Of a stretch of 64,000 nt of DNA, positions 1 to 58,256 are shown in pieces. Location: the NCBI GenBank assembly GCA_021014325.1, contig CM037469.1, forward strand, positions 18,995,701-19,059,700, given 5' to 3'. The notes beneath the pieces were generated by a model that was given only the letters and a program-made list of their open reading frames with translations, was not told the DNA's origin and ran no database searches. Position 1 is the first letter of the stretch. Each line of letters starts with the position of its first letter. This DNA is from Plazaster borealis. Lineage: Eukaryota > Echinodermata > Asteroidea > Forcipulatida > Labidiasteridae. The position numbers and the translations under genes are program-made.

Positions 1-811
1 GCAGCAGTCACAGCAATACGATTTAACCATTACCTCAACAGGTAGGACATCAATGAACAGGCAGATAAACCACTTTGTGGAGCAAACCTAAAGCAGCAGC
101 AGCAGCAGCAGTCACAGCAATACGATTTAACCATTACCTCAACAGGTAGGACATCAATGAACAGGCAGATAAACCACTTTGTGGTTGCACCGAGTAGGGC
201 AGCAGCAAACCTAAAGCAGCAGCAGCAGCAGCAGCCACAGCAATACGACTTAACTATTACCTCAACAGGTAGGACATCAAGGAACAGGTAGGATATCAAG
301 GAACAGGCAGATAAACCACTTTGTGGTTGCACGGAGTAGGGCAGCAGCAAACCTAAAGCAGCAGCAGCAGCAGCCACAGCAATACGACTTAACTATTACC
401 TCAACAGGTAGGACATCAATGAACAGGCAGATAAACCACTTTGTGGTAAAGCAGCAGCAGCAGCAGCAGCAGCAGCCACAGCAATACGACTTAACTATTA
501 CCTCAACAGGTAGGACATCAAGGAACAGGTAGGATATCAAGGAACAGGCAGATAAACCACTTTGTGGTTGCACCGAGTAGGGCAGCAGCAAACCTAAAGC
601 AGCAGCAGCAGCAGCCACAGCAATACGACTTAACTATTACCTCAACAGGTAGGACATCAATGAACAGGCAGATAAACCACTTTGTGGTAAAGCAGCAGCA
701 GCAGCAGCAGCCACAGCAATACGACTTAACTATTACCTCAACAGGTAGGACATCAATGAACAGGCAGATAAACCACTTTGTGGTTGCACCGAGTAGGGCA
801 GCAGCAAACCT

Positions 812-844
<33 letters not shown>

Positions 845-868
845 ACAGCAATACGACTTGACTATTAC
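1..868 (-). repeat. Minisatellite made of copies of a TBC-gene exon end plus CTG tract
   Basis: Read on the minus strand, this is an array of at least seven copies of the 3' part of the adjacent exon (869-1041). Each copy encodes TKWFICLF(I/L)D(V/I)LPVE, keeps the 5' splice site GAG|GTAATAG, and is followed by a (CTG)n tract. Copies of the core start near positions 59, 163, 306, 427, 547, 667 and 764. Some units also hold a CTTTAG|GTTTGCTG stretch that looks like a 3' splice site, so a unit could in principle act as an exon. Units near the exon differ by multiples of three (about 96, 120, 132 bp) and stay open for about 168 codons, reading as Cys runs; farther out a 5'-truncated sub-repeat breaks the frame. 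The array runs off the left edge. Confidence 0.9.
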
Positions 869-3399
869 CTCAACGGGTAGGACATCAAGGAACAGGCAGA
901 TAAACCACTTTGTGGTTGGTATTGACCAGGGTACTGCCTCTTTCTCCATCCTCTGAGCCACTGCAGGGAGTTTTTGTTTGACCAGCTCCCCTAGTACCTC
1001 TTGGTCAGTCTTCAGCCCGGTCATCTGAGGGGTGTAGTATGCTATACAAAAAAAATTTAAAAATCACTTCAGTTTCAAATGATGAAATTCTTGCAGATTT
1101 TGTCCAATCTGTGTGTTGCGTACATACATATATGCACTCCCACTCACCACATTATCATAGATCAGGCTGGAAAAGTGCATCTATTATTCAACATCATGAG
1201 GATGATATTGAATGGTCAGACAGTAGGAGGGTTGACTGTGTATTGTGTAGATACACCACATAATATTATATTGCTATCTGGAATAGTACATCTACATATT
1301 CAAACTATGTGGATGATATTGAATGGTCAGACAGTAGGATTAGTACCAAGCTACATCATTGAATCTAAACAAATCATAACCAAAGTTGCTGCACACAGGC
1401 TAAAAGGTAATGACTTTGAGTTTGACGAACCAGGTAGAATATTTTTGACCAGGGTCTCCAGCAGAAAAAAGCAACTCTCTTCATCTTTGAGGATGAGTAG
1501 CATGAGTGCTACGATAAAGTTGAGCCCCTGGCAGTAGCCGTCCGCCCGGTGATGATGAGAGAACGCCACCAGGACGTTTTGCAGGGAGGTGCGTTTACTG
1601 ACCGTAGAATCGTTACAGAAATAGATGTTCTCTGGGAATGTGCGGTGAAGATCTGACAAAAGAACAAACAAAACCAGAAAAACGCAACAAGTCAAACAAA
1701 AACAGTATCAACATGAATAGCTTGAAATTCTAGGGATTTATTACTTGAAAGTTTGAATCAAAGGGCATAAATGTATTAATTTGTTATATTTGTAATAATC
1801 TCATACTCAAATTGGCTAATTCTGATTAGATAGGGATCATAACATGGATGCTAATTTAAATCTTTCAAAATCTGATATTTGACTTGCAGGGTACATGGTA
1901 ATTTGGGTTTATTAGCATAAAACTCTCCAAGGTTGCCATTTATACACATAGGATAGAAGAATCAAATTATGGTTACTCAAGGACGTATGCATTGTAGACA
2001 GCTAGGCCATGGGAATTAGGACGACAAGAAAACCCAACCAACCTGTTTTTATTACCTAGACAAACCCAACCAACCTGTTTTTATGACCTAGACAAACCCA
2101 ACCAACCTGTTTTGATGACCTAGACAAACCCAACAAACCTGTTTTTATGACCTAGACAAACCCAACGAACCTGTTTTGATGGCCTAGACAAATTCAACCA
2201 ACCTGTTTTGATTGCCAAGACAAACCCAACCAACCTGTTTTGATGGCCAAGACAAACCCAACCAACCCGTTTTGATGACCTAGACATACCCAACCAACCT
2301 GTTTTGATGACCTAGACAAACCCAACCAACCTGTTTTGACGACCTAGACAAACCCAACCAACCTGTTTTGATGACCTCCATCAGCTCCGCATCTTTAGGT
2401 CCATCCAGAAGTCTTTGGTACATGCCTGGGTTTTGTTCTTTAAGTGCTTCGGCTCCACTGAGGTACATCCACACCAGACCTCGGTACTCGTTGGAGATGC
2501 CCTTACGGACGTAACGTTTTACTGTTGGGATAATAAAGCTAATGAGAAAATTTTGATAAGCAGTTGCCCAAGCCGATTAAATCAGCCCAATTTATAATGC
2601 ATTTATAGTGGCTACAACACACTGCGTGACCTCAAAATGATTCAAGTTTTGACACTTGTGTATGCCTTGACTGCAGTCAGTGTCTTGCTCAAGAACAGAA
2701 GTGCCACAAGTGGGACTCAAACCCACACTCTGCCCATCAGAAACACCAGAGCTTGAGTCTGGTGCTCTTAACTGCTCGGCCATGACACGTCACAAAGCCA
2801 AGGTTAAACAAAATGCTCCTCATGAACATACATTGTGAATGACAAATTATAAAACTATATCGACTAATGTTATCAGAAATTATGTTTTTGTTAACCTTAG
2901 TATCCCCCGCTGTCTTTAGCTAGAGACCCTCCTGAATCCTCCACTCTATGGTCACTCAATACCAAAATGTTTGGACATGGATAAGATTGGTATGCCTTGG
3001 CCAGTGATAAGCAATTGTTAGTTGAGCCTACAGTCCCAAATCCTCTAAAATCAGACAACACCCTAAAGAGGATTTTGGAGGATTTGGCTGGGTAAGAGTG
3101 TAATTTCAATTTTGCGACTATTTATGTTTGTTGAGATCATTCAAGAAGTCACTAAAAGAATCCCAGACTTCTTCTCCCTGTGGTCAGTGTAACACAAGTA
3201 ACCATGGACATCTTATCTGAATACAGAGGTTTGTACAAATGTACCTTTGAATGATTTCTTGATGTTTTTCTTTCCATCCATGACCTTGTCCCATTTTCCA
3301 GCTCTCCTTGCCAACACACTTAGATACTGTGACATGAATTGCTCGTAAGTGTCATAATCGAAGTCGTCTGGCCGCCTGAACCCATAGGCATCAATCTCA
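869..3399 (-). CDS. GRTP1: TBC-domain Rab GTPase-activating protein, GRTP1-like (partial, 4 exons)
   Basis: Four coding exons on the minus strand: 3399-3245, 2521-2363, 1652-1431, 1041-869, joined with phases 1, 1, 1, and ending at a codon boundary. They read in frame as the N-terminal and central part of growth-hormone-regulated TBC protein 1. Landmarks seen: YGFRRPDDFDYDTYEQF at the start, KRYVRKGIS, the arginine-finger motif IxxDxxR as IKTDLHR (spanning the 2363/1652 junction), the glutamine-finger motif YCQGLNF, GLKTDQEVLGELV and KWFICLFLDVLPVE. TBC proteins stimulate GTP hydrolysis by Rab GTPases in vesicle traffic; both catalytic fingers are kept, so activity is expected. The last exons (after LPVE) lie beyond position 1. 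The first exon with the start codon was not recognised; only a few residues are missing compared with the vertebrate protein. The 3' ends of exons 2521-2363 and 1041-869 are both duplicated into arrays in the following introns. Confidence 0.88.
2027..2376 (-). repeat. 32-bp minisatellite derived from the exon end and 5' splice site at 2363
   Basis: About eleven tandem copies of a 32-bp unit. On the minus strand the unit reads CTAG, GTCATCAAAACAG, GTTGGTTGGGTTTGT. GTCATCAAAACAG is the last 13 coding bases of the TBC exon ending at 2363, and GTTGGT is its 5' splice site, so every unit repeats the exon end and donor; the unit also supplies a CTAG that could act as an acceptor. Copies differ by a few substitutions. 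The first copy on the minus strand is the functional exon junction itself. Confidence 0.88.
2646..2789 (-). mobile_element. tRNA-derived SINE head
   Basis: On the minus strand: ATGGCCGAGCAGTTAAGAGC (A box region), ACTCAAGCTCTGGTG, then a B-box-like GGGTTTGAGTCCC and the SINE body start CTTGAGCAAGACACT. The head resembles a long-arm tRNA such as tRNA-Leu(CAA). The same head is at 32050 (plus) and 63746 (minus). The copy is truncated at its 3' side. Confidence 0.75.
2895..3105 (-). repeat. Dispersed repeat, also at 56940-57260
   Basis: About 150-180 bp here match, in reverse, the segment around 56980-57125 (shared words include TGTAGGCTCAACTAACAATT and TTGGTATTGAGTGACCATAG). Both copies carry the same short open frame, but it has no start context, splice signals or known domain. 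I read it as a transposon-derived repeat of unknown class, lying in the intron between TBC exons 3245 and 2521. Confidence 0.6.
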
Positions 3400-6774: not shown

Positions 6775-7210
6775 GTGTGTGGCACCATGGAGCACGGACG
6801 CCCGGCGGGGCTGACGATGACCTCGCGCAAAGAAGACAGTACACACGGCCTATTTCTCGGAACTACTGCAGGGCTAGGTGAGGTAAGTTACAGAACAACT
6901 CCCTGCTCTTTCAAGCATGGCATGGCCTAACAATTAAACCAACGATTACGTCCTCTCACAATGAACTAGTAAAAGAAACACTATTCTGAATTACAACTTG
7001 AAACACGCCTACCTTCGAATAAAATCAGCGCTGGGCTGGGCGTTTGAGGCACCGCCTGTAGCCGCCATGATGTTTGTTGTGTATTGTATAAACGTTGGTG
7101 GCGCTGTTTACTCTACAGCAACCAAAAATTCCGCCATACATCTCTGTAAAAATTGGTGCCGTTGTCAAGCATTATTCGTTACGTTTTTAGGATAAAAAGC
7201 TGGTTGAATT
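6775..7210. promoter_or_regulatory. Putative divergent promoter region between the TBC gene and DAW1
   Basis: The interval is CpG-richer than its surroundings near 6775-6840 and lies directly before the DAW1 start codon, with the minus-strand TBC gene on the other side. An AG|GTAAGT donor at 6882/6883 follows a short open stretch with ATG at 6787 and could end a non-coding first exon. No TATA box stands out. The promoter assignment is positional inference. Confidence 0.4.
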
Positions 7211-22567: not shown

Positions 22568-23927
22568 TCACTCAAGGTTCCCATATGCCACGTGTCGTCG
22601 TCTCTTCTTCACAATATAAACACTAATACCCATGATGATAGCAACACCTCCGATTACCCCAATGACGATACCTACTACCATCCCAGTATTACTAGGGGAG
22701 GGGGTGGGTTTTGTAGCAGGAGGGGTGGTTATAAGGGTCACTGTTGTACCATTTTCGAGTTCAGTTGTGCTTGGGAAAGTGCTGTTCACAGTAGTCATAA
22801 CCATGGTGGTCACATTCCCAGTTGTATTTGAGGGTGAAGTAGTCATGTTAGCGGTGCTTGGTTGTTTGGTGGTTACATTTGCTGTGGTGGGCAGTTCAGT
22901 GGTCACTTTTGCTGTGGTCATCTTGGCTGTGGTGGGCTGTTCAGTGGTCACTTTTGCTGTGGTGGGCTGTTCAGTGGTCACTTTTGCTGTGGTCATCTTG
23001 GCTGTAGTGGGCTGTTCAGTGGTCACTTTTGCTGTGGTTGGTTGTTGGGTGGTAACTTTTGCTGTGGTTGGTTGTTTGGGGGTCACTTTTGCTGTGGTCC
23101 TAACTGTAGTGGCTGCAGATGGAGACATTGTTGGTATAGTAGTCCCTTTAGCTGTGACTGGCGTTGATGTGCCCTCGCTATTTATATCCAAAGCACACTC
23201 TGTATTCATGAAAAATATACACTGTTCTGCATCACAAAACTCTTTTCTTATTGCATCCATGTCTCCTACAAATTTTTATGATGAATCATTTGATAGTCTC
23301 CGTGATGCAATATTAGTAAATTCTAGGTACACCAAGATGATGTCCAGCATTTTGTTGCAATTGGGAACCTCAGTTCTTGAGACCGGTCTCAAGAAAGACC
23401 CGATTAGTTGACATCTTGGCTGTTTCCCGGTCTCTGTCAATTTAAAAGTTGGTGTCGGTCTTAAGCAAAGGTCTTGGGGTCTTAGGTCGAGACCTTTATT
23501 TCATAATCATCCCAAAACAAACAAAACTAGAGAAAGGAATGCAAAAGACCTAACAGATTGTTGGAGGTGTATTTCAAGCTGGCCCTGCGGTGTTTTTTCC
23601 CCCATACAATATAGTGGCTATGTGACAACGTGAAGCATGAGCGAAGCCATGGGGAAAAAGCAGTGGTTCAGCATAAAAAATCCATTAAAAATAAAGAAAG
23701 TTGGCTTAGAAAATTGTTTTATTGTTTACAGTACAGATTAATCTGCGTCCCGGTCTTAGTCTTATGGTATCGATGGCAAGGTCTCCGTTTCGGACATTGA
23801 GGTCTGTGTTTCTGGACACTGAGCTCTCGGTCTCCGTATCGGCTTCCGATTTTTTTGTTACAATTACAACACTGTTAAACTTACCCAGCATGAGGATGAA
23901 AACTAGGAAGCATCTTAAAGATTTCAT
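22568..23927 (-). CDS. Mucin-like type I membrane protein with LAMP/endolyn-like tail
   Basis: Two exons on the minus strand: 23927-23885 (MKSLRCFLVFILML, signal peptide, phase 1 donor GTAAGT) and 23265-22568, joined in frame, 246 residues. After a short N-terminal segment with three cysteines (FCDAEQC...ECALD) comes a Thr-rich stalk with imperfect TTAKVTTEQP repeats (O-glycosylation), N-x-T/S sites, a Ser/Pro stretch, one transmembrane helix (about residues 206-229) and a short tail KKRRRHVAYGNLE. YGNL fits the YXXphi lysosomal/endosomal sorting signal, and the tail resembles LAMP tails. No luminal LAMP domain is present, so this could be an endolyn/CD164-like sialomucin or a LAMP relative that lost its domain. 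It lies head to head with the LAMP-like cluster. An extra near-identical first exon is at 27178-27220. Confidence 0.78.
22860..23110 (-). repeat. Coding minisatellite, Thr-rich stalk repeats
   Basis: Imperfect tandem units of 30-39 bp encode TTAKVTTEQP and TTAKMTTAKV variants inside the membrane mucin exon. Unit number is likely to vary between alleles, as in other mucin stalks. Confidence 0.8.
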
Positions 23928-24922: not shown

Positions 24923-25756
24923 TGCACACTAACACTACTGGTTGGCAAAACGAGGGAACATTGTACCATGATTTTTATGGGGCTGATGGTGATGTGATCC
25001 TTTCTCTATGGTCTGACAAGTGCACAACTCTGAGGCGTTTGCCAACCAATTGTACGCATGCGTGAATGTAATTACGATAATCATGGCAGGTATAGGACCT
25101 CCATGGTAGTACATTGTAAAATGTTTGAGTTTGTCTGTCTTTTCAACGTTCAAATAGTTTCGGGCTAACTTTGCCTTAATTGTAATGACAACTGCTAACC
25201 AACCAAAAGGGAGTATGTTATAAATGAAAACAAGTGGCCTGACGATTCGACCCTAGCAGATCGTCTTCCTCGAAGGAGAGGCATCCGAATGTTTGATTGA
25301 AATCGAAAGATACACGTAAGTGCGTGTATATGGTCGATCCCATTGCTTGCTGACCGACTTTGTTTGGACCTACAAATTATAGTTTTCCAAACTGTACTTT
25401 GTTAGAATTTGCATTAAGATTTTTCCCGTGACGTGTGATTGTTCACCGTTGGTGACCCCAAAGGGACACCGATCATATTCATGACCCACAAAATTAACCA
25501 CTTGCTTGTGTACAAGTCGTGAATAATGACGCCAATATTTCCGAGAAAATTAACGACACTTACTACAACAAGTCGAGGTTATTAACAACTATATCGACGG
25601 CAATGAATCCTTCAACAAACAACTCAAATTTTTTCAAATATATTTTTTGGTAATTAGCCTTTCCAACCGACCTTTTCTCCATAGAGACTGAACATCATGT
25701 TATTATCCAAAGTGGAACACAGCCTGTGGTCTGTTTCAATTATGGGTAGTTTTCAT

Positions 25757-25793
25757 GAGCCAAAATTGCTACAAGTTCTAGCAATTTTGGCTC
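25757..25793. other. Perfect 15-bp hairpin with 7-base loop
   Basis: GAGCCAAAATTGCTA, then CAAGTTC, then TAGCAATTTTGGCTC. A second identical hairpin is in duplication copy 2 near 29051-29087. No known RNA family is recognised. Confidence 0.8.
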
Positions 25794-26790: not shown

Positions 26791-29700
26791 TCATCCCAAA
26801 ACAAACAAAACAAACAAAACTAGAGAAAGGAATGCAAAAGACCTAACAGATTGTTGGAGGTGTATTTCAAGCTGGCCCTGCGGTGTTTTTTCCCCCATAC
26901 AATATAGTGGCTATGTGACAACGTGAAGCATGAGCGAAGCCATGGGGAAAAAGCAGTGGTTCAGCATAAAAAATCCATTAAAAATAAAGAAAGTTGGCTT
27001 AGAAAATTGTTTTATTGTTTACAGTACAGATTAATCTGCGTCCCGGTCTTAGTCTTATGGTATCGATGGCAAGGTCTCCGTTTCGGACATTGAGGTCTGT
27101 GTTTCTGGACACTGAGCTCTCGGTCTCCGTATCGGCTTCCGATTTTTTTGTTACAATTACAACACTGTTAAACTTACCCAGCATGAGGATGAAAACTAGG
27201 AAGCATCTTAAAGATTTCATCTTGTAAGTTCCCGTGAATCACTTAGTAAACCTGATGACATGCAGAAAGCTCACAGCATGTGTAATGGCCACTACTCTTT
27301 CCTATCACTGTTTGTTTCACTTCAACAGTGCATTAATGAGAAGATATTATATCAGACCAAAGGGTCAATTTTTATCTAAACTGATAAGCATAAACATAAA
27401 TTACATGCAGCAAATCTGCTTAACAGGTAGGGGCTGTGATTTGTCTATATGAGATTACCCAAGCATGGTATGATGCAAGAATGATCAGTTTATCTGTGGG
27501 ATTGTGGCCATAAATGGATTAAGATTTGCTGCAGTGTAAATAAGTGCCTTGGTGTTGTTAGATTGGTTATCTGTATGATACTGATTTGTTCAGTCAAGGT
27601 TCAGTTTGGAAAACTTCTAAAGAGGTTTCATTTTGCAAAGGTTCAAAACTTCCTTCATGGTACAACACCCTGAATTATAACACCCATACTTAGATTCTGC
27701 CTTGTGATTGGTAAAGAGTGCGTCACATGATGTTGTATTTTTACTAGGAAGCTGCGCAAGCGCTAAATACCATATAAAACAAAAATGGCTGCTTTTACTC
27801 GTGCTATGGTTAAAACAATGACTCCCCGACCATGCTATTTTCCCGAGGAAATAAAAGGCTCTGGGGGTCAACTCGGGGAGTCAAAGTGGGATTAAGTAAA
27901 CCTTTAAAAAATGCTGGAGGGAAAATAAAAAACAAACAAACACAAGGATAACATTCAGATACAAAGAAGGCTGAATTTCTAACTTTATAATAGGCCATTT
28001 TTTTATTAAAGAATTACAAAAATATATTTATGTTTATATTGATCAAAAATTAGTTGTTGGAAAGAAACTAATTTTCTGATCTTCGCTTTAATAATTACAA
28101 AAACCCAATCAGAATTGATACATTGAGGAGGTATTTAAAAATCATAATTGTGATAGTAATAGTGACTTTTATAGAATAGACCTTTCCCATAAAATATGTA
28201 AATTGCACATCACGTGTGCACACTAACACTACTGGTTGGCAAAACGAGGGAACATTGTACCATGATTTTTTATGGGGCTGATGGTGATGTGATCCTTTCT
28301 CTATGGTCTGACAAGTGCACAACTCTGAGGCGTTTGCCAACCAATTGTACGCATGCGTGAATGTAATTACGATAATCATGGCAGGTATAGGACCTCCATG
28401 GTAGTACATTGTAAAATGTTTGAGTTTGTCTGTCTTTTCAACGTTCAAATAGTTTCGGGCTAACTTTGCCTTAATTGTAATGACAACTGCTAACCAACCA
28501 AAAGGGAGTATGTTATAAATGAAAACAAGTGGCCTGACGATTCGACCCTAGCAGATCGTCTTCCTCGAAGGAGAGGCATCCGAATGTTTGATTGAAATCG
28601 AAAGATACACGTAAGTGCGTGTATATGGTCGATCCCATTGCTTGCTGACCGACTTTGTTTGGACCTACAAATTATAGTTTTCCAAACTGTACTTTGTTAG
28701 AATTTGCATTAAGATTTTTCCCGTGACGTGTGATTGTTCACCGTTGGTGACCCCAAAGGGACACCGATCATATTCATGACCCACAAAATTAACCACTTGC
28801 TTGTGTACAAGTCGTGAATAATGACGCCAATATTTCCGAGAAAATTAACGACACTTACTACAACAAGTCGAGGTTATTAACAACTATATCGACGACAATG
28901 AATCCTTCAACAAACAACTCAAATTTTTCAAATATATTTTTTGGTAATTAGCCTTTCCAACCGACCTTTTCTCCATAGAGACTGAACATCATGTTATTAT
29001 CCAAAGTGGAACACAGCCTGTGGTCTGTTTCAATTATGGGTAGTTTTCATGAGCCAAAATTGCTACAAGTTCTAGCAATTTTGGCTCGGGGCATCTGAGG
29101 GCGTCCCATCCCTAGTGATCAGAGCAAGGGTTTGGCGTGGTGAAAAGGATTTGGTGCAGCAGGTTGTGTTAATGAACCATACGTTCTTAACCTCTGGACC
29201 AACCTGGAGATGCCCAAAATAGTAAATAATGACAACGTGGTGATTAATACAATGCCTTGTCACACTATTTGTCTCTTTCATTAATTTGTTGGTGTGCCTT
29301 CTTTATGTATTTTTTTGTAAACATCTTATTTCTTTTTGTGTTATACTTTTCGAAGTCTACGGGAAATAATTCTACCTCCGCGCTACAATACTGTCGGGTA
29401 ATCCCAGCTATAACTGCCTGTAACACTCAAGTTGGGACTGCTCCATAAAACTGCAGTTACGATTCTTAAGTTGTCTGTGCTCATCATCTGGACGTTGAGG
29501 GCGAAGTTGGAAAAGCTTTCTCTGAGCGCGGAGCTATACGAAAACGGTCCACACGCTGGACTACTATGAGATAGGAAGGGTTGTAGGCCTACGTTTTTCA
29601 CAGGACAACTATTTTCTTGCACGGGTGTCTCAGACGTGATACCTTTTTGTACCCTGCAACTTCTTGCCCATTAAAAAAACAAACTGAAACATACATCTAA

Positions 29701-36789: not shown

Positions 36790-39700
36790 GAATATTGGGA
36801 AACCCAATTCACAATGCAAGGCTCAGTTCGGGATTCGAATCAGGGTCATTCGGTAGGGACTGGAAACCCAATAAAAAATGCAAGGCTCAGGTCGGGGATT
36901 CGAACCAGGGTCAATCGGTAGGGACTGGAAACCCAATCCACAATGCAAGGTTTAGGTCCAGGGATTCGAGTCAGGGTCAATCGGTAGGGACTGGAAACCC
37001 AATTCACAATGCAAGGCTCAGGTCAGGGTTTCGAACCAGGGTCAATCGGTAGGGACTGGAAACCCAACCCACAATGCAAGGCTCTGGTCAGGGATTCGAA
37101 CCAGTGTCAATCGGTAGGGACTGGAAACCCAATAAAAAATGCAAGGCTTAGGTCGGGGATTCGAACCAGTGTCAATCGGTAGGGACTGGAAACCCAATAA
37201 AAAATGCAAGGCTTAGGTCAGGGATTCGAACCAGGGTCAATCGGTAGGGACTGGAAACCCAACCCACAATGCAAGGCTCAGGTCAGGGATTCGAACCGGG
37301 GTCAATCGGTAGGGACTGGAAACCCACTCAAAAATGCAAGGTTTAGGTCAGGGATTCGAACCAGGGTCAATCGGTAGGGACTGGAAACCCAATCCAAAAT
37401 GCAAGGCTTAGGTCAGGGATCCGAACCAGGGTCAATCGGTAGGGACTGGAAACCCAATCCACAATGCAAGGCTTAGGTCAGGGATTCGAACCAGTGTCAA
37501 TCGGTAGGGACTGGAAACCCATTCCACTATAGGTCCAGGGATTCGAATCAGGGTCAATCGGTATAGGGACTGGAAACCCAATCCACAATGCAAGGCTTAG
37601 GTCAGGGATTCGAACCAGGGTCAATCGGTAGGGTCTGGAAACCCAATCCACAATGCAAGGCTTAGGTCAGGGATTCGAACCAGGGTCAATCGGTAGGGTC
37701 TGGAAACCCAATCCACAATGCAAGGCTTAGGTCAGGGATTCGAACCAGTGTCAATCGGTAGGGACTGGAAACCCATTCCACTATAGGTCCAGGGATTCGA
37801 ATCAGGGTCAATCGGTATAGGGACTGGAAACCCAATCCACAATGCAAGGCTTAGGTCAGGGATTCGAACCAGGGTCAATCGGTAGGGACTGGAAACCCAA
37901 TCCACAATGCAAGGCTTAGGTCAGGGATTCGAACCAGGGTCAATCGGTAGGGACTGGAAACCCATTCCACTATAGGTCCAGGGATTCGAATCAGGGTCAA
38001 TCGGTAGGGACTGGAAACCCAATCCAAAATGCAAGGCTTAGGTCAGGGATCCGAACCAGGGTCAATCGGTAGGGACTGGAAACCCAATCCACAATGCAAG
38101 GCTTAGGTCAGGGATTCGAACCAGGGTCAATCGGTTGGGACTGGAAACCCAATCCACAATGCAAGGCTTAGGTCAGGGATTCGAACCAGGGTCAATCGGT
38201 AGGGACTGGAAACCCAATCCACAATACAAGGCTTAGGTCAGGGATTCGAATCAGGGTCAATCGGTAGGGACTGGAAACCCAATCCAAAATGCAAGGCTTA
38301 GGTCAGGGATTCGAACCAGGGTCAATCGGTTGGGACTGGAAACCCAATCCACAATGCAAGGCTTAGGTCAGGGATTCGAACCGGGGTCAATCGGTAGGGA
38401 CTGGAAACCCAATCCACAATGCAAGGCTTAGGTCAGGGATTCGAATCAGGGTCAATCGGTAGGGACTGGAAACCCAATCCACAATGCAAGGCTCAGGTCA
38501 GGGATTCGAACCAGGGTCAATCGGTAGGGACTGGAAACCCAATCCAAAATGCAAGGCTTAGGTCAGGGATTCGAACCAGTGTCAATCGGTAGGGACTGGA
38601 AACCCAATCCACAATGCAAGGTTTAGGTCGGGGATTCGAACCAGGGTCAATCGGTAGGGACTGGAAACCCAATCCACAATGCAAGGCTCAGGTCAGGGAT
38701 TCGAACCAGGGTCAATCGGTAGGGACTGGAAACCCAATCCACAATGCAAGGCTTAGGTCAGGGATTCGAACCAGGGTCAATCGGTAGGGACTGGAAACCC
38801 AATCCAAAATGCAAGGCTTAGGTCAGGGATTCGAACCAGGGTCAATCGGTATAGGGACTGGAAACCCAATCCACAATGCAAGGCTTAGGTCAGGGATTCG
38901 AACCAGGGTCAATCGGTAGGGACTGGAAACCCAATCCAAAATGCAAGGCTTAGGTCAGGGATTCGAACCAGGGTCAATCGGTAGGGACTGGAAACCCACT
39001 CCAAAATGCAAGGCTTAGGTCAGGGATTCGAACCAGTGTCAATCGGTAGGGACTGGAAACCCATTCCACTATAGGTCCAGGGATTCGAATCAGGGTCAAT
39101 CGGTATAGGGACTGGAAACCCAATCCACAATGCAAGGCTTAGGTCAGGGATTCGAATCAGGGTCAATCGGTAGGGACTGGAAACCCAATCCAAAATGCAA
39201 GGCTTAGGTCAGGGATTCGAACCAGGGTCAGGGATTCGAACCAGGGTCAATCGGTAGGGACTCGAAACCCAATCCACAATGCAAGGCTTAGGTCAGGGAT
39301 TCGAACCAGGGTCAATCGGTAGGGACTGGAAACCCAATCCAAAATGCAAGGCTTAGGTCAGGGATTCGAACCAGTGTCAATCAGTAGGGACTGGAAACCC
39401 ATTCCACTATAGGTCCAGGGATTCGAATCAGGGTCAATCGGTATAGGGACTGGAAACCCAATCCACAATGCAAGGCTTAGGTCAGGGATTCGAACCAGGG
39501 TCAATCGGTAGGGACTGGAAACCCATTCCACAATGCAAGGCTTAGGTCAGGGATTCGAACCAGGGTCAATCGGTTGGGACTGGAAACCCAATCCACAATG
39601 CAAGGCTCAGGTCAGGGATTCGAACCAGGGTCAATCGGTAGGGACTGGAAACCCATTCCACTATAGGTCCAGGGATTCGAATCAGGGTCAATCGGTATAG

Positions 39701-40485
39701 GGACTGGAAACCCAATCCACAATGCAAGGCTCAGGTCAGGGATTCGAACCAGGGTCAATCATTAGGGACTGGAAACCCAATCCACAATGCAAGGCTCAGG
39801 TCAGGGATTCGAACCGGGGTCAATCGGTAGGGACTGGAAACCCAATCCAAAATGCAAGGCTCAGGTCAGGGATTCGAACCAGGGTCAATCGGTAGGGACT
39901 GGAAACCCAATCCACAATGCAAGGCTCAGATCAGGGATTCGAACCAGGGTCAATCGGTTGGGACTGGAAACCCAATCCAAAATGCAAGGCACAGGTCCAG
40001 GGATTCGAACCAGGGTCAATCGGTATAGGGACTGGAAACCCAATCCACAATGCAAGGCTCAGGTCAGGGATTCGAACCAGGGTCAATCGGTTGGGACTGG
40101 AAACCCAATCCAAAATGCAAGGCACAGGTCAGGGATTCGAACCAGGGTCAATCAGGTAGGGACTGGAAACCCAATCCACAATGCAAGGCTCAGGTCAGGG
40201 ATTCGAACCGGGGTCAATCGGTAGGGACTGGAAACTCAATCCAAAATGCAAGGCACAGGTCAGGGATTCGAACCAGGGTCAATCAGGTAGGGACTGGAAA
40301 CCCAATCCACAATGCAAGGCTCAGGTCAGGGGTTCGAACCAGGGTCAATCATTAGGGACTGGAAACCCAATCCAAAATGCAAGGCTCAGGTCAGGGATTC
40401 GAACCGGGGTCAATCAGGTAGGGACTGGAAACCCAATCCAAAAGCAAGGCTCAGGTCAGGGATTCGAACCGGGGGTTACAGAGGT
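36790..40485 (-). repeat. 65-bp satellite with a Pol III B-box-like core in each unit (about 55 copies)
   Basis: Tandem units of 65 bp such as GGGATTCGAACCAGGGTCAA plus TCGGTAGGGACTGGAAACCC plus the AATGCAAGG spacer. On the minus strand each unit reads CCTGGTTCGAATCCC, the tRNA T-arm/B-box consensus (GGTTCGANTCC). A shorter variant with ATTCCACTATAGGTCC replaces a unit near 37524, 37784, 37964, 39067, 39403 and 39658, giving a higher-order pattern. Copies are about 95 percent alike. Open frames over this block are repeat artefacts. Confidence 0.95.
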
Positions 40486-48400: not shown

Positions 48401-51400
48401 AGGGGGTGATTACCATTTTGTGATAACTGTTTCAGAATTGTATGAACGCATTCCTGTTTCAATCTGTCACTTCGCCATTCATCTTGCCAGCATGATTGGC
48501 TACTCTCTGCAATTTCTTAAAATACTCCTGTCTGCACCCACCATACCAAACCACACAACTAAAAAGCATTACACTTTCTATTACTGAGTTATTTGAGTTA
48601 TAATTGTAAATTTTCTTTATCCTGACGACAGGTTACTGTTCAGGGGCCATCAATGGCACTGATACAACTCCAGCAACTCCAATGACCACAGGCATTGTTC
48701 TAACAACAGTAATGAACAACACTGGATCTCATAATGACACAAAACCCACAGCAAACGGGACAACTACTGAAACACCAACTGATCATCCAAACATTACAGA
48801 AAAGGCGGTTACGACAACAGAGGGCAGCAATACAACTACCATGTCTTCCGGCAATGCAACAACAAACATGTCATCCATGCCTACTCAACCTACCACACCT
48901 CGTCCACAGACCACACCCGCTGCGCAGACCACACCCACTGTGCCGACCACGCCCAAACCTGAGATGTCTTGGAAGGTGATGAACGGTAACGAGACCTGTC
49001 AGTTGATGCGGTTCGCATTGACCATCAAATACTACAACACAAAAGGCATGGTAAGTTAATACTCTTAACTTAATAATGGCCAATTGGTGCCTATCACTCA
49101 GTCATCAGGAAATCTCTCAATCGCATGTTCATGTACATGTTTATCATATCCCCTAACATCTGCAATGCATGGCCAGGGGTGGATCCAGAAAGTAATTTGC
49201 TGAGGGGTCTGAGAGTCGTTTTCAGCAGTGCTGCCAGCCACTAAACCTGTGTGTCAACAATTGCTTAGATATTGGACCAATAGGCATGGGAGTGGCAGGC
49301 CTGGAATTTCACTTTTTTTCTAGCAATGCATAGGTCATGGGTTCGAATCCCACCTGAGTGATTTGCCTGTGGTTTTTGTGTGCAGAACTCGGGAAATATT
49401 GAGTATACCTTGCTTAATACACATTGGTGTAAGGGTAAAATATAAATTATATTCTTCATCCCCGATGCAAAACTAACATCTATTAAGACGGTTTTCATTA
49501 TGCAAAGGGCACTTCCATTGGAAAATCTTAAAGAAACAGACGCCATTGCCTCTGTGGCCTCTGTGTAATTCCAGGCCTGGAATGGAGGAAACATACAGTA
49601 GTACCCCCTGGATCAGCCACTGCACATACATGTATCTACAGAGATTACACTATTAGTGTTAAACACTTCGACTTGAGCTAATAGCAATAACAAAGGAAAG
49701 TTAAGCGTCCCTCACTCTCTTTCACCAGGCTAAGTCTTCAATGTTGTAAGTTTACTTACTTTCCCCCAAAAACGTGTTGTTTTTTGTCTAAATTGGTAAA
49801 AAGAAAACTGCTTCTTTTCATTCTCCAGCTAACTGATGTGAACGTGTCAGTCCCATTTGAGGAGCCACTTTCAAATGTAACCGGTGACTGCTCCTCTCAG
49901 GAAAAGAGAACATTTGCCATTAACTTCTACCCAGATAGCAATAGGAGTTGTGACCCCTGGGCCATGCGATTTGTATTCAAAACTGTCAACTCGAATGCAT
50001 TTCATTTGACCTCTCTGTCATTTGAGTTGAAATACGACGACCGTTTTGATACTATTGAAGAAGGTAAGTTAGAATCTTTAAAATTGTCAACTTTAACACA
50101 TTTCATTTGACCTCTCTGTCATTTGAGTTAAAATACGATGACTGTTTTGATACTACTGAAGAAGGTGAGTTGGAATCAAGCAACAATAGACCCATTGCAT
50201 ATGAAGACACACTCTCAAAATGGAGGCAGATCATTGGACGATAGCTGTTCTTTGTGCGTAAAAACGTGCGCATGACCTCAGCGTACCTGTAGCGTTTCAC
50301 GTTATGCAAGGGGGATCTATTGATTTCTATAGACCCCTTACACAACGCGGAACGTGCCTCCGAACAATGCGCGTCATTTTGGGTGTCAACTCACTTTTGT
50401 GCATGTTTGTATACGATTTTGACACCCAGGATAGGTACATGTGAGTACGCTGCGTGTTGAGCAAGGGGTCTATAGCAGAATCTGAAATGCTAGGTGGCAT
50501 CAGACATAATAGTAATAAAAACTAGACATTCAGTTTTTGTCATGTGACAAAAACAAGGTGTTCGTGGGGAGTGATTGAATGAATATACATTCTACCTTAT
50601 CAATCCAATGCCTGGTCCAGGAGTTATGAATTTTTCAAAAAAATTAACCTCAACTTCTGGTTTGGACCGGAAGTCAAGGTCAAATAGGGGTCACATTTTG
50701 TGTAGCGCGTTTAGTTTATGAAGATGATTTAGATGATGTATGGATTGTAAACCTCCAACAATATGTTGAAACATTAACTTTCACTTTCCGGTTTGAACCG
50801 GAAGTCAAGGTCAAATGAGGTCACAGTGTGTAGCGTTTCTTAAATCTTTGGAGCCCTTTGTGATGATGTATAGATGATAAAAATCCAATGTGTGGCTCAG
50901 GAGTTCTGATTTTTTCAAATATTAAATTTCATCTTCCGGTTTGAACAGGAAGTAAAGGTCAATTGGGGTCACATTCTGTATTATATCGTTTGTGAAGTTG
51001 TTACACACTTGTCCAATGATGTATAGATTGTAAAAATCCATTGTGCGGTTCAGGAATTATGAATTTTGAAACATTAAATTTCAACTTCCGCTTTGAACCG
51101 GAAGTCAGGGTCAAACGGGGTCACAATAAGTGTAGTGTATGTTAGGTTTTATAAAGACCTTTCGGATGATGTATAGATTGTAAAAATCCATTGTGTGGTT
51201 CAGGAATTATGAATTTTGAAACATTAAATTTCAACTTCCGCTTTGAACCGGAAGTCAGGGTCAAATGGGGTCACAATAAGTGTAGCGTATGTTAGGTTTT
51301 ATAAAGACCTTTCAGATGATGTATACATATTGTAGATTGTAAAAATCCAATGTGTGGTTCAGGAGTTACGAATTTTTCAAGTATTACATGGATTATCTTT

Positions 51401-57959: not shown

Positions 57960-58256
<297 letters not shown>

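What the first reader, a model, noticed from the sequence alone, without database searches (positions are those of the whole stretch)
869..2376. Two independent arrays in one gene, each built from an exon 3' end plus its splice donor
In the TBC gene the exon ending at 2363 and the exon ending at 869 each have their last coding bases and GT donor amplified in tandem in the following intron: a 32-bp unit carrying 13 coding bases, and a 96-132-bp unit carrying about 50 coding bases. Each unit supplies a donor and a possible acceptor (CTAG or CTTTAG), so the arrays are strings of candidate micro-exons. Tandem duplication across AG|GT sites is a proposed route to new introns; here it may be caught in progress. 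Seen: the arrays. Inference: functional splicing.
Basis: partly seen in the sequence, partly recalled or inferred. Interest (0 to 1): 0.85.

Follow-up and report, generated by a model that had tools for sequence, protein, structure and literature searches.

The report
Minisatellites astride two starfish splice sites
In a starfish gene, two repeat arrays have grown over the ends of two exons and copied the exon tail with its splice signal many times into the next intron; this looks like tolerated repeat growth of a kind already described in amphioxus rather than a string of new exons.

Summary
Observation right; interpretation only partly. The gene is GRTP1 (TBC, minus strand) of a sea star near Asterias rubens (97% protein identity). 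Array 1 (2030-2377): 32-bp units with 14 bases of exon 3 plus donor, 11 donors. Array 2 (918 to about 214 bases left of the window): 96-142-bp units with 48 bases of exon 5 plus donor, 9 donors and a decayed tenth. Most copied donors match the true one, but later exon-3 donors shift frame or follow a stop, and 4 of 6 candidate exon-5 cassettes are out of frame. These are 'mirages', exon-boundary minisatellites reported in amphioxus; human analogues exist. A probable third case lies in the window (49979-50177). Among 88 other conserved exons of this genome, 3 carry boundary-spanning arrays. Array coverage at donors (4 of 88) is no higher than intron background (4-7%), so nothing indicates targeting. 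GRTP1 is 32% array, so two donor hits are unsurprising. Best reading: neutral minisatellite growth over donors of existing introns. What is added: such arrays in a sea star, apparently recurrent. RNA use, polymorphism and intron age were not tested; array 2 leaves a few in-frame splice options open.

The parts
2030..2377 (-). Array 1: 32-bp units, each with the last 14 bases of GRTP1 exon 3, its donor and 12 more intron bases; 11 donor copies (2363 true, then every 32 bases to 2043)
1..918 (-). Array 2, the part inside the window: 96-142-bp units, each with 48 bases of GRTP1 exon 5, its donor, a CTG run and, in 7 of 9 units, TTTAG; continues left of the window to about -214 (C15:18995486)
2363..2521 (-). 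GRTP1 exon 3 (donor side at 2363)
869..1041 (-). GRTP1 exon 5 (donor side at 869)
1431..1652 (-). GRTP1 exon 4
3245..3399 (-). GRTP1 exon 2
7015..7068 (-). GRTP1 exon 1, coding part (ends approximate, from the tblastn match)
49979..50177 (+). Probable third case: last 85 bases of a LAMP-like exon plus GTAAGT donor, duplicated in tandem (101-bp period, 2 copies, second donor GTGAGT)
   Evidence: LAMP match marginal

Best explanation
Two separate minisatellites of the 'mirage' kind in the GRTP1 gene of a sea star. In a genome rich in minisatellites, tandem duplications now and then take in the last bases of an exon and its donor. The copy still joined to the exon stays the first donor downstream of that exon and goes on being used; later copies fall inside the intron, so the duplication is nearly neutral and is free to grow, shrink and homogenise by slippage or unequal exchange. 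Shown here: the anatomy, the exon ends by homology, the likeness of the copied donors to the true ones, the frame consequences, the recurrence at other exons of the genome, and no excess of arrays at donors over introns. Inferred: that the first donor is the one used, that the arrays are neutral, and how they grow.
For: Anatomy. Identical 241-bp blocks at 215-455 and 456-696, a mark of recent exchange. The exon-attached copy of exon 5 differs from all 8 further complete copies at the same two sites (CCC/CCT, GTC/GTT), as if kept out of homogenisation. Only the first exon-3 donor gives an in-frame product. In 12 aligned relatives the exons join without array peptide (annotation models, other species). 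Boundary-spanning arrays at 3 of 88 other exons (L046, L049, L073). Array coverage 4 of 88 at donors against 4-7% in introns. In L046, 2 of the 3 copies scored have a stop in the exon part, 19 non-synonymous and 12 synonymous changes. The same structures in amphioxus are reported not to disturb splicing (passages of PMC3087553).
Against: No RNA, population or cross-species DNA evidence was available. Array 2 keeps the frame open past the true donor to base 520, and donors 2 and 3 are in frame. Copied donors of array 2 equal the true one, so first-donor use is assumed. GRTP1 and LAMP copies show no clear coding decay: 8 synonymous and 9 non-synonymous in exon 5, 5 and 3 in exon 3; the LAMP-like copy has 5 amino-acid changes in 28 and no stop in its frame.
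Confidence: 0.83

Rival explanations
1. The arrays are usable splice sites: later donors or unit cassettes enter some transcripts and make GRTP1 isoforms (in-frame extensions of 44 or 76 aa at exon 5, or cassettes of 54 and 72 nt).
For: Donors 2 and 3 of array 2 are in frame, and 2 of 6 candidate cassettes are divisible by 3; 6 of 8 extra donor copies of array 2 are identical to the true donor over the scored bases.
Against: Extensions would put runs of cysteine and a second copy of a helix inside the TBC domain (translation). Array 1 units are frame-shifting and too tightly packed. 12 relatives show no such peptide.
Confidence: 0.08
2. Intron gain in progress: tandem duplication of AG|GT is creating new introns at these places.
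For: Tandem duplication of exonic AGGT is a reported route to introns (passages of PMC3443670), and mirages have been proposed as one (PMC3087553).
Against: Both introns exist and the units hold their donors plus intron sequence; no new intron results unless a unit becomes an exon. Intron age could not be settled: TBC paralogs in the same genome have introns close by but in other phases.
Confidence: 0.04
3. A process tied to splice donors or exon ends (for example at RNA-DNA hybrids or replication stalls) seeds the arrays there.
For: Two donors in GRTP1, a probable third in the window, and 4 donors against 1 acceptor covered among 88 exons.
Against: Coverage at donors is no higher than in introns; donor against acceptor P = 0.37; GRTP1 is itself 32% array.
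Confidence: 0.05
4. Assembly artefact: collapsed or inflated repeats.
For: Two 241-bp blocks are identical; no reads were available to check copy number.
Against: Other units differ by point changes and internal indels, the array ends in a decayed unit, and unrelated loci of the same assembly show the same kind of structure. Copy number may still be wrong.
Confidence: 0.03

Closest known systems
Amphioxus 'mirages' (Adh3, troponin C, globins BflGb6 and BflGb9; similar repeats in PGBD5)
   Same: Tandem minisatellite units spanning an exon-intron boundary, many with AG/GT signals, several independent genes; reported units 10-72 bp (Adh3) and 150-160 bp (globins) bracket the sizes here (passages)
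   Different: A sea star, not a cephalochordate; two arrays in one gene; length polymorphism and normal mRNA, shown in amphioxus, were not tested here
Human internal tandem repeats at exon-intron boundaries in segmental duplications (PMC2812944)
   Same: Minisatellites at exon-intron boundaries, about 30-bp units on average (passages)
   Different: Defined by variation between paralogs, with transcript support for altered introns; neither was available here
Intron gain by tandem genomic duplication of exonic AGGT (PMC3443670)
   Same: Tandem duplication holding AG|GT (passages)
   Different: That route starts inside an exon and yields a new intron; here the donors of existing introns are multiplied

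Membership tests
Mirage (exon-intron-boundary minisatellite) | Tandem units that span an exon-intron boundary and include exon bases | tested here: met
   exon ends by homology
Mirage (exon-intron-boundary minisatellite) | Many units keep the splice signal | tested here: met
   11 donor copies in array 1, 9 in array 2
Mirage (exon-intron-boundary minisatellite) | Normal mRNA splicing is not disturbed | not testable with these tools
   no RNA data; protein models of 12 relatives join the exons normally
Mirage (exon-intron-boundary minisatellite) | Length instability between alleles or cells | not testable with these tools
   one assembly only; identical 241-bp blocks hint at recent exchange
Intron gain by tandem duplication | A new intron bounded by the duplicated AGGT copies | tested here: not met
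   units carry donors of existing introns plus intron sequence
GRTP1 (RabGAP-TBC) | TBC domain and best match to GRTP1 | tested here: met
   PF00566 143.8 bits; 97% to Asterias rubens GRTP1

The most novel reading that the evidence does not exclude
Boundary-spanning minisatellites are pervasive in this sea star (3 of 88 exons sampled, so thousands in the genome if the sample holds), and a fraction of them are used: extra donors or unit cassettes, such as the in-frame 132- and 228-base extensions of GRTP1 exon 5, enter transcripts and differ between individuals, a live supply of new exons.
Probability: 0.12. Interest if true: 0.7.

Novelty: new member of a known kind. Interest (0 to 1): 0.38.

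Why it matters
The papers I saw describe boundary-spanning minisatellites in amphioxus and in human segmental duplications. Finding them in a sea star, at 3 of 88 sampled exons, suggests they may be an ordinary by-product of minisatellite-rich genomes. They are natural tests of donor choice (up to 11 near-identical donors in a row after one exon) and of whether tandem duplication can feed exon or intron birth.

Tried and rejected
A 'beyond chance' claim for two donor hits in one gene was dropped, because the gene is 32% array. Intron age from TBC paralogs of the same genome: inconclusive. LAMP homology by protein search: none of 506 candidates at E <= 1e-5; the Pfam match is marginal, 27.3 bits against a cut-off of 27.2, so 'LAMP-like' and its exon end are tentative. 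Synonymous against non-synonymous counts in the GRTP1 copies are too few to decide; divergence of exon and intron parts gave no uniform pattern (exon 5: 17/421 against 12/200; exon 3: 8/136 against 5/173; L046: 33/246 against 12/237). In one search the LAMP boundary and frame were set wrong; one search gives the corrected comparison. The donor score was trained on 52 donors that I picked by a consensus rule, so it is circular and only good for comparing copies. Species: 560,608,030 bases and 717 contigs resemble Plazaster borealis, 561,050,340 bases and 801 scaffolds (passages of PMC9270726), but the counts differ; not proven. Arrays near L043, L050 and L055 turned out purely intronic; L060 and L071 abut the donor without exon bases. 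Papers looked at (passages) and found not relevant: PMC12783039, PMC3549977. Further survey families (PF00063, PF00118, PF00102) and a DNA search with array 1 did not complete, so the survey rests on TBC and kinesin exons, and whether array 1's unit occurs elsewhere in the genome was not learned.

Full report
What the gene is. Minus-strand exons at 7015-7068, 3245-3399, 2363-2521, 1431-1652 and 869-1041, then exons left of the window at about -487 to -299 and about 4.9 kb left of it, encode GRTP1, a RabGAP of the TBC family. Exons 2 to 5 joined give 236 aa, 97% identical to Asterias rubens GRTP1 and 88% to Patiria miniata over the full query. The window is C15:18995701-19059700 of a 560.6-Mb assembly, so the organism is a sea star close to Asterias; the size suggests Plazaster borealis but the scaffold count differs.

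The arrays. Array 1 (2030-2377) has 32-bp units: the last 14 bases of exon 3, the donor GTTGGT and 12 further intron bases; it holds 11 donor copies. Array 2 starts at 918 inside exon 5 and continues past the window's left end. Its units of 96 to 142 bp hold 48 bases of exon 5, the donor GTAATA, more intron bases, a run of 5 to 9 CTG and, in 7 of 9 units, TTTAG. It holds 9 donor copies and ends at about -214 in a decayed unit that lacks 13 exon bases. Two blocks of 241 bp are identical.

What would happen if units were spliced. In array 2, 6 of 8 extra donors equal the true one in the scored bases and 2 score slightly lower; in array 1, 7 of 10 extra donors are identical to the true one. Past the true donor of exon 3 the frame closes in the third unit, and donors at +32 and +64 shift the frame. 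Past the true donor of exon 5 the frame stays open to base 520, and donors 2 and 3 extend the exon by 132 and 228 bases in frame. Cassettes bounded by TTTAG and the next donor are 73, 92, 92, 73, 54 and 72 nt. So array 1 offers nothing useful, while a few combinations in array 2 could be read, at the cost of cysteine runs and a second copy of a helix inside the TBC domain. In the 12 relatives aligned (of 330 proteins found), the exons join without array peptide. Whether any unit is used in this species is untested.

Is it special to this gene? No. In the same window a LAMP-like exon has its last 85 bases plus GTAAGT duplicated in tandem at 49979-50177; its exon end rests on the open frame and a marginal Pfam match. 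I then sampled TBC and kinesin exons elsewhere in the genome: 60 loci from two family searches, of which 3 are GRTP1's own and were left out, plus 38 exon matches in nine kinesin regions, of which 7 were already counted: 88 exons. Arrays that include exon bases were found at 3 of 88: L046 (donor), L049 (acceptor) and L073 (donor, decayed, judged by eye); 95% interval 0.7-9.6%. L060 and L071 start at the donor without exon bases. Arrays cover 4.4% of positions 0-20 bases past the domain-match end on the donor side (4 of 88 exons) and 4.4-6.4% of positions 60-1500 bases away; on the acceptor side 1.1% (1 of 88) against 5.0-7.1%. The donor-acceptor difference is not significant (P = 0.37). Limits: domain-match ends stand in for exon ends; some loci may be duplicate contigs (L013 and L014 score alike); I picked the nine regions for their number of exons, and two of them hold exons (L050, L060) that I already knew to lie near arrays, which I did not count again.

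Chance and cause. Arrays of period 12 or more cover 32% of the 12.1-kb GRTP1 span, so two of six donors inside arrays is expected in 62-63% of random placements. The simplest account is neutral: minisatellites grow in introns, and growth over a donor is tolerated because the exon-attached donor stays first. The exon-attached copy of array 2 differs from all 8 further complete copies at two sites, as expected if the exon is kept out of homogenisation. In L046, 2 of 3 scored copies carry a stop in the exon part. The counts in GRTP1 itself are too few to show coding decay, and the LAMP-like copy has no stop.

What is known. Minisatellite-like duplications of intron-exon boundaries were named mirages in amphioxus, first in Adh3, then in globins, with troponin C and PGBD5 also named (passages: PMC3087553; PMC3902484). 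The globin paper says they do not seem to disturb splicing and proposes them as a route to intron gain. Human tandem repeats at exon-intron boundaries are described in PMC2812944 (passages), tandem duplication as an intron-gain route in PMC3443670 (passages). Three searches aimed at echinoderms (4, 4 and 10 papers listed) showed no title or abstract start describing this in a sea star; I saw mostly listings, did not open a listed sea urchin paper on repeats in Sp185/333 genes (PMC5103432), and subscription papers are not held. So this is a new member of a known kind, in a group for which I found no report.

Noticed in passing
window 49979-50177 (+): A LAMP-like exon end with its GTAAGT donor is duplicated in tandem (101-bp period, 88% match); the second copy would shift the frame if its donor were used.
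   Followed up: partly
L046 1651-2420, L049 1101-1581, L073 5492-6069: Kinesin exons elsewhere in the genome with boundary-spanning arrays: 168-bp and 103-bp units at donors, a 158-bp unit at an acceptor.
   Followed up: partly
L060 1236-1512 and L071 1882-2311: Arrays that begin within a few bases of a donor but hold no exon bases.
   Followed up: no
window 23779-23828 and 27072-27121; 25701-25778 and 28995-29072: The same repeat and the same peptide recur 3.29 kb apart, which points to a segmental tandem duplication of about 3.3 kb.
   Followed up: no
window 36798-40474: A 65-bp minisatellite with about 57 copies (3.7 kb), the largest array in the window.
   Followed up: no
L009 5619-6790 (C15:18991819-18992990): A 46-bp array of 25.5 copies in the last GRTP1 intron; GRTP1 is unusually rich in arrays, 32% of its span.
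   Followed up: no
window 22869-23098 (-): A minisatellite lying inside an open threonine-rich, mucin-like reading frame.
   Followed up: no
window 58129-58256: A perfect TTA run of 42.7 copies.
   Followed up: no
C571 and C21 (L013, L014): Two contigs give TBC matches of the same score and length, perhaps an unmerged haplotype.
   Followed up: no
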